Source: Candidatus Zymogenus saltonus (GTDB lineage Bacteria; Desulfobacterota; Zymogenia; Zymogenales; Zymogenaceae). Taken from it: 64,000 bases of DNA. The position numbers and the translations under genes are program-made. The notes under the pieces are model-generated. The model worked only from the letters and a program-made list of their open reading frames with translations, had not been told where the DNA came from and made no database searches. The stretch covers positions 1 through 64,000 of the forward strand of contig JAFGIX010000023.1 of NCBI GenBank assembly GCA_016929395.1. Reading direction: 5' to 3'. Shown piece by piece: positions 41,875 to 44,555 of the stretch (positions are counted from its first letter, which is position 1; every line of letters begins with the position of its first letter).

Positions 41875-41990
41875 TTGAAGGCCCACCCCGCCCGCCCAAC
41901 CGCAAATAGAATAAAACCGCTGTTTTACCCCCACACCCCCAAGATGAAAAAACCCCCCTTATAAAGGGAGGCATTCAAAATAGTTGGATA
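41875..41990 (-). repeat. C-rich (minus-strand G-rich) tract before pyrC
   Basis: The stretch after the 127-residue gene's stop is built of short C-rich pieces on the plus strand (CCCACCCCGCCCGCCC, ACCCCCACACCCCCA, AACCCCCC). It is G-rich on the sense strand of the preceding gene. A clear repeat period is not visible. Confidence 0.35.
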
Positions 41991-42021: not shown

Positions 42022-42405
42022 CTACATGTTGCTTTCTTCTATATGAAAACTAAAGACATGGCTAAACTTATCGGGGATGAAGACCACCTCCACATCATAA
42101 TCCATTATTATCGTGGTTTTTTTACCTCCCATCGACTTTTTGATCTCGATCTCCCCCTCGAGAGGATCGCTGCTTATCGCCCTTACTTTTCTCGGAAGCG
42201 CTCCCTCGATACAGCTCTTCGGCTGGTTACGACAATCGATGGCCAATTCCTTGACTATCTTCTTGACCCTGAACCAGTCGTAATAGGGCTTTGCCACCTT
42301 GAGTCCCCCATAGCCTATCGCCGCAATTATTAGGATTATTACAAGCGTCTTGAATCTGGTTGCGCCCCGCTCCCCCGATAACAGCGATCTTATTCTATTT
42401 TTCAT
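42022..42405 (-). CDS. Small membrane-anchored protein (DUF4845-like)
   Basis: A 127-residue protein with one N-terminal membrane helix (about 18-36, after the segment GERGATRFK) and a small extracytoplasmic domain (about 45-120) containing two cysteines in DCRNQPKSC. Layout and the N-terminal GERG motif resemble DUF4845 proteins, which in many proteobacteria are encoded next to lepB, as here. Function unknown. It lies 101 bases downstream of the lepB cluster. Confidence 0.65.
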   Translation of the reverse strand: MKNRIRSLLSGERGATRFKTLVIILIIAAIGYGGLKVAKPYYDWFRVKKIVKELAIDCRNQPKSCIEGALPRKVRAISSDPLEGEIEIKKSMGGKKTTIIMDYDVEVVFIPDKFSHVFSFHIEESNM

Positions 42406-42506: not shown

Positions 42507-43142
42507 TTAGTCGGAAGAGCGAAGAAATCCGATCCTGTTTAACCGGATATCCCGGAAAATCCCTCTAGCCGGGTTCGTAGACCAGTAGATAAAAACGACC
42601 TTGCCCTTTATCTCGCCCGACGTAATGAACCCGAAAAACCTGGAATCCATGGTTACGTCCCTCCTGTCGCCCAGGAGGAAATAGGAATCGGCGGGGACGA
42701 TAAACGGCCCCAGGTTGTCCCTCTCGGAGATACTCCCGGGATAAAGTTTTTCGTCGCTCAAGGTCACGTACGGCTCACGGATAGGTTTCCCATCGATGAA
42801 TACCTTTTTATCGACGATCTCCACGGTATCTCCGGGAACTCCCACAACCCTGAGCACCGATGACGTCCCGGCGCCGTCATCCTCCCGGGCCTCCTTCTCG
42901 AAGAAGACTATATCCCCCCTCTTCGGCTTTTTTATCTCGAAGGGCCTCCCCCCTATCGGAACGGAAAGGTTATACGAAGCGCTGCCGACGAGGACGTAGT
43001 CGCCGCTCTTGAGGCCCGGCTCCATCACAGGCGAGGTTATCAAGACGTTGTCGAAGAGGAGGACATATAGAAAAAAAACGAGGATAAAGAGTGCCGCTGT
43101 ACCATAAAAGCCGATGTCTTTGTCCCCAAGTTTTCTAAACAT
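42507..43142 (-). CDS. Signal peptidase I paralogue lacking the catalytic Ser-Lys pair
   Basis: A 211-residue S26-family protein with one N-terminal membrane helix (about 12-32). Aligned with the two neighbouring paralogues, the nucleophile position in SGSMIPTL reads SPVMEPGL (Ser to Val) and the general-base position in YIKRLIGLPGD reads VLRVVGVPGD (Lys to Leu). The structural boxes GDIVFFE, VPGD and GDRRD...DSRFFG remain, so the fold is kept under selection while peptidase activity should be lost. It may be a regulatory or substrate-binding partner. It is the last gene of the three-copy cluster. Confidence 0.85.
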   Translation of the reverse strand: MFRKLGDKDIGFYGTAALFILVFFLYVLLFDNVLITSPVMEPGLKSGDYVLVGSASYNLSVPIGGRPFEIKKPKRGDIVFFEKEAREDDGAGTSSVLRVVGVPGDTVEIVDKKVFIDGKPIREPYVTLSDEKLYPGSISERDNLGPFIVPADSYFLLGDRRDVTMDSRFFGFITSGEIKGKVVFIYWSTNPARGIFRDIRLNRIGFLRSSD

Positions 43143-43163: not shown

Positions 43164-43844
43164 CTATTTATTCAGGAGGATATCGCCCAGCCTGCTCCAG
43201 CGGATGTTTTTGATCCGCTCGACAATCCCCCCGGAGGTTATGTCCCATGACCAGTAGATTATCACGGCGTTGCCCACAAGCTCCGACTTCTTGACGTAGC
43301 CCCAGTATCTCGAATCCCTGCTGTTGTCGCGGTTGTCGCCCATCATGAAATACGAGTCGGCCGGCACGGTAACCGCGCCGAAGTTGTCTCTTGGCCCCGC
43401 GATGCCGGGAAAAACCGCCAAGTCGTCAAAATGGGCGGCCTCAACCACATACTTCTCCCCGTTCACATAGAGCAGTTTGTCCCTTATCTCTATCTCATCG
43501 CCGGGAAGCCCTATGAGCCTCTTTATGTAGTGAACCCGCCTGTCGTTCGGATATTCGAACACGATTATGTCGCCCCTCTCCGGCTCCCTTATGGGGAAGA
43601 GCTTCACATCGCTGAACGGCACCCTCGTTCCGTAGATGAACTTGTTGACCAGTATCTGATCGCCCCTCAAGAGCGTGGGGATCATGGAGCCGGAGGGTAT
43701 CTTGAATGCCTGGATGATAAAGGCCTTTATTACGAGGGCGAGGACGAGGGCGAAGATGATCGCCTCGGCATACTCCCTGAAGGTGCTCCTGTTTAAGTTC
43801 CTCTGAACCTTATTTTTTTCCCTGCCATTTGCGGAACCACTCAT
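43164..43844 (-). CDS. lepB: Signal peptidase I
   Basis: Cleaves signal peptides from exported proteins. The 226-residue protein has one membrane helix (about 30-48), catalytic Ser in PSGSMIPTL (about 53), catalytic Lys in HYIKRLIGLPGD (about 110) and the GDNRDNSRDSRYWG box. It is very similar to the next gene upstream (43869-44555), a tandem duplicate 24 bases away. Confidence 0.95.
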   Translation of the reverse strand: MSGSANGREKNKVQRNLNRSTFREYAEAIIFALVLALVIKAFIIQAFKIPSGSMIPTLLRGDQILVNKFIYGTRVPFSDVKLFPIREPERGDIIVFEYPNDRRVHYIKRLIGLPGDEIEIRDKLLYVNGEKYVVEAAHFDDLAVFPGIAGPRDNFGAVTVPADSYFMMGDNRDNSRDSRYWGYVKKSELVGNAVIIYWSWDITSGGIVERIKNIRWSRLGDILLNK

Positions 43845-43868: not shown

Positions 43869-44555
43869 TCATTTACGGCCTTTTAGGAGAACATCGCCCA
43901 GCCTGCTCCAACGGATGTTCTTGATCCGCCCGAAAAATCCCCCCGAGCTTATGTCCCACGACCAGTAGATTATCACGGCGTTGCCCACCAGCTCCGATCC
44001 CTTGACGTATCCCCAGGACCTCGAATCGCTGCTGTTGTCGCGGTTATCGCCCATCACGAAATACGAGTCGGCCGGCACTGTAACCGCATCGAGGTTATCC
44101 CTGTGCACGGCGATTCCTGGTATAATTGTGGGGTAGTCATAATGGGCGCTTTCGACCTCATACCTCTCCCCGTTCACATAGAGAAGTTTGTCTCTTATCT
44201 CTATTACATCTCTGGGAAGTCCTATGAGCCTCTTTATGTAGTGAACCCGCCTGTTGTTCGGATATTCAAAAACGACTATTTCGCCCCTCTTCGGCTCCCT
44301 TGCGGGGAAGAGCTTCACATCGCTGAAGGGAATTCTCGTTCCGTAGGTGAACTTGTTGACCAGTATCTGATCGCCCGCGACCAGCGTTGGAATCATTGAA
44401 CCCGAGTCCACCTTGAACGTCTGTACGATAAACGCCTTTATTACAAGGGCAATGACGAGGGCAAATACGATCGCCTCGATATAATCCCTCAGGGCGCTCC
44501 TGTTTGACCTGGCATTAACCTTTTCTTCGCCCCGACCGTCCCCGGAACTTCTCAT
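43869..44555 (-). CDS. lepB: Signal peptidase I (tandem copy)
   Basis: A 228-residue protein closely similar to 43164-43844 over its entire length, with catalytic Ser in DSGSMIPTL, Lys in HYIKRLIGLPRD and the GDNRDNSSDSRSWG box. PGD after the lysine is changed to PRD, a small departure from consensus. It is the first gene of the cluster. Having two apparently active enzymes plus one inactive paralogue suggests different substrates or membrane partners. Confidence 0.94.
   Translation of the reverse strand: MRSSGDGRGEEKVNARSNRSALRDYIEAIVFALVIALVIKAFIVQTFKVDSGSMIPTLVAGDQILVNKFTYGTRIPFSDVKLFPAREPKRGEIVVFEYPNNRRVHYIKRLIGLPRDVIEIRDKLLYVNGERYEVESAHYDYPTIIPGIAVHRDNLDAVTVPADSYFVMGDNRDNSSDSRSWGYVKGSELVGNAVIIYWSWDISSGGFFGRIKNIRWSRLGDVLLKGRK

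What the first reader, a model, noticed from the sequence alone, without database searches (positions are those of the whole stretch)
42507..43142. Signal peptidase paralogue without the catalytic Ser-Lys dyad
Alignment with its two neighbours gives Ser to Val in SPVMEPGL and Lys to Leu in VLRVVGVPGD while the flanking boxes are conserved. The frame is intact, so the protein is probably kept for a non-proteolytic role, such as modulating or presenting substrates to the two active copies beside it.
Basis: partly seen in the sequence, partly recalled or inferred. Interest (0 to 1): 0.7.

Follow-up and report, generated by a model that had tools for sequence, protein, structure and literature searches.

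The report
Conserved dead signal peptidase beside lepB
Next to its normal signal peptidase genes this bacterium carries a third copy whose cutting machinery has been lost but whose fold has been kept by selection in all four sampled members of its family, so it probably helps handle exported proteins without cutting them.

Summary
The protein at 42507-43142(-) is a full-length type I signal peptidase (S26) homologue. The catalytic Ser is Val39 and the catalytic Lys is Leu97; the scaffold is intact. It is not a private mutation or a decaying gene. All four held genomes of its family (same genus, and two further genera) carry an orthologue in the same place, after one to three active SPase copies. 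All four replace the general-base Lys by Leu ("LRVVG"). Ser varies (V, G, S, G). The residue that steadies the Lys in E. coli (Ser278) is changed in all four, as are N274 and W284, while structural Asp/Arg residues are kept. They form one clade (100/99 support). Synonymous sites are saturated, yet the frame stays open and 40-58% of the protein is retained against the window copy. The clade was not seen elsewhere in 395 genomes of the phylum. The model folds as an SPase; the pilus-assembly pseudo-SPase SipA is among the best solved matches. Dead SPases are known in Gram-positives (SpsA, SipA); this is a separate one, in bacteria encoding Omp85 and no sortase. A membrane-anchored, non-cleaving substrate-binding or accessory subunit is the likeliest role; that role is inferred, not shown.

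The parts
42507..43142 (-). pseudo-signal peptidase (S26 fold, 211 aa, one N-terminal membrane helix, Ser to V39, Lys to L97)
43026..43028 (-). codon of V39, at the place of the catalytic Ser (E. coli Ser90)
   Evidence: alignment to neighbours and to LepB
42852..42854 (-). codon of L97, at the place of the catalytic Lys (E. coli Lys145); Leu in all four orthologues
43164..43844 (-). active-type signal peptidase copy B (SGSM, YIKR intact), 21 bp upstream of the pseudo-SPase gene
43869..44555 (-). active-type signal peptidase copy A (dyad intact; recent duplicate of B)
42022..42405 (-). small single-pass membrane protein, found downstream of SPase genes in several families of the phylum
41952..41972 (-). 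terminator-like hairpin with T tail after the small membrane protein; suggests the four genes end together
   Evidence: pattern match only

Best explanation
It is a catalytically dead, membrane-anchored paralogue of signal peptidase I. It probably arose by duplication at the lepB locus before the known members of this family diverged, lost its general base (Lys to Leu), and has been kept under purifying selection. Most likely it sits in the inner membrane beside the active SPase. It uses the retained SPase fold and hydrophobic cleft to bind signal peptides, preprotein stretches or the active enzyme without cleaving them: an accessory or holding subunit that tunes or presents substrates. Shown: dyad loss, conservation, one clade, syntenic place, intact fold prediction. 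Inferred: loss of activity, membrane complex, substrate binding.
For: Dyad loss in register with two references. Orthologue in 4 of 4 family genomes, in the same slot rfbD - SPase(s) - pseudo-SPase. Lys to Leu in 4/4. Ser278 (which stabilises Lys145, PMC4049620) becomes T/T/T/M; N274 becomes R/R/R/H; W284 becomes F; Gly272, which must be Gly beside Lys145 (PMC4049620), has become Ala in G003. Of 34 columns invariant in 35 active enzymes, 18 are kept in all four, 11 are mixed and 5 are lost in all four; three of the five are Lys145, N274 and Ser278, which supports loss of catalysis rather than general decay. Synonymous sites saturated (pS 0.65-0.87) with pN/pS 0.34-0.63; simulated neutral drift of 0.5 substitutions per site leaves the frame open in only 0.25% of runs, ignoring indels. 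One clade at 100/99. Model pLDDT 84, pTM 0.81, best solved matches LepB, SpsB and SipA. A homologue with the same loss and a non-proteolytic role exists (SipA, PMC4049620).
Against: No activity, binding or complex data. Faster evolution than the active copies (identity to the same-genus orthologue 58% against 74%). The G002 copy keeps Ser, lacks the C-terminal tail and its downstream partner gene is 3.4 kb away, so one lineage may be losing it. [quoted passage not shown] Only four genomes of the family are held.
Confidence: 0.6

Rival explanations
1. A decaying redundant duplicate: the array of SPase genes turns over and this copy is on its way out.
For: Tandem array with variable copy number; faster evolution than active copies; truncated tail in G002.
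Against: Open frame and syntenic place in four species across three genera with saturated synonymous sites, and one shared Lys to Leu change.
Confidence: 0.07
2. A protease with a rebuilt active site, using another base or nucleophile.
For: Four-way invariant residues that are less common in active enzymes exist (E41, Y49, E123, T127); the general cleft is kept.
Against: Lys is replaced by a hydrophobic residue in all four, the Ser position is V/G/S/G, no new invariant Lys or His appears; the best-studied analogue SipA shows no peptidase activity (PMC4049620).
Confidence: 0.07
3. A negative regulator or decoy: it binds signal peptides or dimerises with active SPase to restrain processing, rather than help it.
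For: Same anatomy as the accessory hypothesis; the 21-bp spacing suggests co-expression with the active copies.
Against: No evidence separates help from restraint.
Confidence: 0.2

Closest known systems
SipA (Spy0127) pseudo-SPase of Streptococcus pyogenes pilus islands (PDB 4n31, PMC4049620)
   Same: S26 fold, membrane anchored, Ser and Lys both replaced, Ser278 position altered (and Gly272 position, as in G003), non-proteolytic; among the top structural matches
   Different: SipA has Asp/Gly at the dyad, lies in sortase pilus clusters and serves pilus polymerisation; here no sortase or exosortase family match in the four genomes, the gene sits at the lepB locus, and sequence similarity is weak (E 1.6e-6)
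SpsA of Staphylococcus aureus (PMC12445088)
   Same: S26 paralogue described as inactive, lacking two conserved catalytic residues, alongside the active SpsB
   Different: Gram-positive, described as dispensable, no role given in the paper read; direct sequence comparison not made here
LepB / signal peptidase I (E. coli LepB, PDB 1b12 and others)
   Same: Fold, conserved box scaffold, N-terminal membrane anchor
   Different: Catalytic dyad absent; single predicted membrane helix

Membership tests
Signal peptidase I (active, S26A) | S26 fold and sequence profile | tested here: met
   126 bits Pfam, 134 bits TIGR02227; Foldseek to LepB E 1.7e-8
Signal peptidase I (active, S26A) | Catalytic Ser in box B | tested here: not met
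   V39; G, S, G in orthologues
Signal peptidase I (active, S26A) | Catalytic Lys in box D | tested here: not met
   L97; Leu in 4 of 4 orthologues, Lys in 35 of 35 active comparators
Signal peptidase I (active, S26A) | Peptidase activity | not testable with these tools
   none
Pseudo-SPases (SipA/SpsA type) | SPase fold without the Ser-Lys dyad, retained in several species | tested here: met
SipA (pilus assembly factor) | Located in a sortase/pilin gene cluster | tested here: not met
   lepB-rfb-pyr locus; no sortase family match in four genomes
DUF4845 (downstream small protein) | Match to PF16137 at the downstream gene | tested here: not met
   no match to it in Pfam scan or genome search

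The most novel reading that the evidence does not exclude
In a lineage of bacteria with an outer-membrane Omp85, signal peptidase I works with a dedicated non-catalytic SPase-fold subunit, encoded between lepB and a small lepB-linked membrane protein: a bacterial accessory subunit of the general signal peptidase.
Probability: 0.3. Interest if true: 0.7.

Novelty: new variant of a known kind. Interest (0 to 1): 0.45.

Why it matters
Bacterial signal peptidase I is usually pictured as a one-protein enzyme. A pseudo-SPase fixed at the lepB locus of a whole family would make it testable whether some bacteria use a non-catalytic partner for signal-peptide processing, as the streptococcal SipA serves pilus assembly. 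Three further S26 copies with a single dyad residue changed (L114, L115, L123) suggest that dyad loss happens repeatedly.

Tried and rejected
(1) Alternative Ser-Lys alignment: no clade-wide Lys other than K112, which active enzymes share. (2) Pseudogene: rejected on conservation. (3) Broad family: the four-sequence profile over 395 genomes of the phylum gives 302-350 bits for the four orthologues and 189 or less for every other match; those of the best-ranked others that were read at both places keep the dyad. The genome-contig scan with the single protein found no close relative. (4) SipA-like pilus role: no sortase or exosortase match. (5) DUF4845 identity of the downstream protein: not supported, and its model matches no solved structure. 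(6) Origin from the family's own active copies: the pseudo and active clades join only at 53/31 support, so not shown and not rejected. (7) Exact dN/dS: synonymous sites are saturated, so only a rough ceiling can be given. (9) The organism's name could not be obtained; genome handles bear none.

Full report
Observation. The ORF at 42507-43142 on the minus strand is intact (211 codons, ATG) and lies 21 bp behind signal peptidase copy B (43164-43844), itself 24 bp behind copy A (43869-44555). It belongs to Peptidase_S26 by Pfam and to the bacterial signal peptidase I model by NCBIfam. Aligned with both neighbours and with E. coli LepB, the nucleophile is V39 and the general base L97. The own genome has only these three full S26 genes; a fourth weak hit elsewhere is an S24/S26-like peptidase next to a Gly-rich peptide gene.

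Conservation. A search of the relatives and then of 395 genomes of the phylum found orthologues in all three other held members of the family: G001 (same genus, 58% identity), G002 and G003 (two further genera). No genome of the same order or class outside the family appeared in the sample. With a profile of the four, they score 302-350 bits and everything else 189 or less. Each lies directly after the active SPase array: one active copy in G001, two in G002, three in G003. The surrounding order is rfbB - rfbD - SPases - pseudo-SPase - small membrane protein, then pyr genes (pyrC in the window; pyrR, pyrB and onwards in G003).

Pattern of change. Lys is Leu in four of four. Ser is V, G, S, G. 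The residue that stabilises the Lys in E. coli (Ser278, PMC4049620) is T, T, T, M; N274 is R, R, R, H; W284 is F in all. In G003 the Gly that must leave room for the Lys side chain (Gly272, PMC4049620) has become Ala. By contrast the residues aligned with E. coli M91, P93, R146, D276, D280 and R282 are kept in all four. Of 34 columns invariant among 35 active comparators, 18 are kept in all four, 11 are kept in some and five are lost in all. So the chemistry went and much of the scaffold stayed. E. coli numbering here is by alignment and established knowledge of LepB.

Selection. Synonymous sites are saturated between the four genes (pS 0.65-0.87) while pN is 0.26-0.45. Exact dN/dS cannot be given; pN/pS of 0.34-0.63 overstates the ratio. 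Simulated neutral drift of 0.5 substitutions per site leaves this frame open in 0.25% of runs, without counting indels. The gene evolves faster than the active copies (same-genus pN 0.26 against 0.14 for copy B).

Origin. The four form one clade (100/99) with a long stem, separate from the family's active copies, which also form one clade. Whether the two are sisters is unresolved (53/31). In other families of the phylum the small membrane protein follows an active SPase directly (G033, G069, G062, G051). The pseudo-SPase thus sits between lepB and its usual downstream neighbour, as tandem duplication at that locus would produce.

Elsewhere in the phylum. Among 124 S26 rows examined, three others lack one of the two residues: L114 (Lys to Met), L115 (Ser to Ala), L123 (Ser to Ala). 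None outside the family was seen to lack both; several rows were partial and could not be read at both places.

Structure. AlphaFold2 on a 39-row alignment gives pLDDT 84 and pTM 0.81, with a membrane helix at 7-29 and the beta fold of SPases. The best solved matches are E. coli LepB, S. aureus SpsB and SipA (TM-score 0.72 by the SipA chain's length). Coordinates could not be inspected, so the state of the cleft is judged from sequence only.

Function. Known dead SPases are SpsA, described as inactive and dispensable (PMC12445088), and SipA, which has no peptidase activity but is essential for pilus polymerisation (PMC4049620). The genomes here show no sortase or exosortase and do have Omp85, so SipA's pilus role does not carry over. 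I favour a non-cleaving accessory or substrate-binding subunit at the SPase site. A restraining role is a close rival that the evidence cannot separate. A caution from SipA: a mutation predicted to block its cleft did not disturb function (PMC4049620).

Novelty. Pseudo-SPases are a known kind. What seems new is one fixed at the lepB locus of a family of outer-membrane-bearing bacteria, with its own residue signature. Searches of the held open-access papers found no description of such a protein in Gram-negatives, which is weak evidence given the library's limits.

Noticed in passing
window 42022-42405 (-): A 127-aa single-helix membrane protein with no Pfam family follows SPase genes in several families of the phylum; model: long helix then three strands, no solved match. 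It may be a general lepB-linked protein.
   Followed up: partly
window 43869-44555 (-): Active copy A is a recent duplicate of B (76% identity, dS about 0.5) and departs at usually fixed places: VDSGSM instead of IPSGSM and LPRD instead of LPGD. It may be specialising or weakening.
   Followed up: no
L114:480-1082, L115:241-1083, L123: Other S26 homologues in the phylum with one catalytic residue changed (Lys to Met; Ser to Ala; Ser to Ala).
   Followed up: partly
L004:1234-1925 (G000:C40): Small S24/S26-like peptidase with a SM..AHR pattern, beside a Gly-rich, Cys-containing peptide gene and a further ORF that looks like an HPr-kinase relative; perhaps a ribosomal peptide cluster.
   Followed up: no
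G002:C80:46065-49426 (L068, L137): In G002 about 3.4 kb with two genes (a kinase-like ORF and a ferredoxin-type ORF) lie between the pseudo-SPase and the small membrane protein, breaking the usual order.
   Followed up: no
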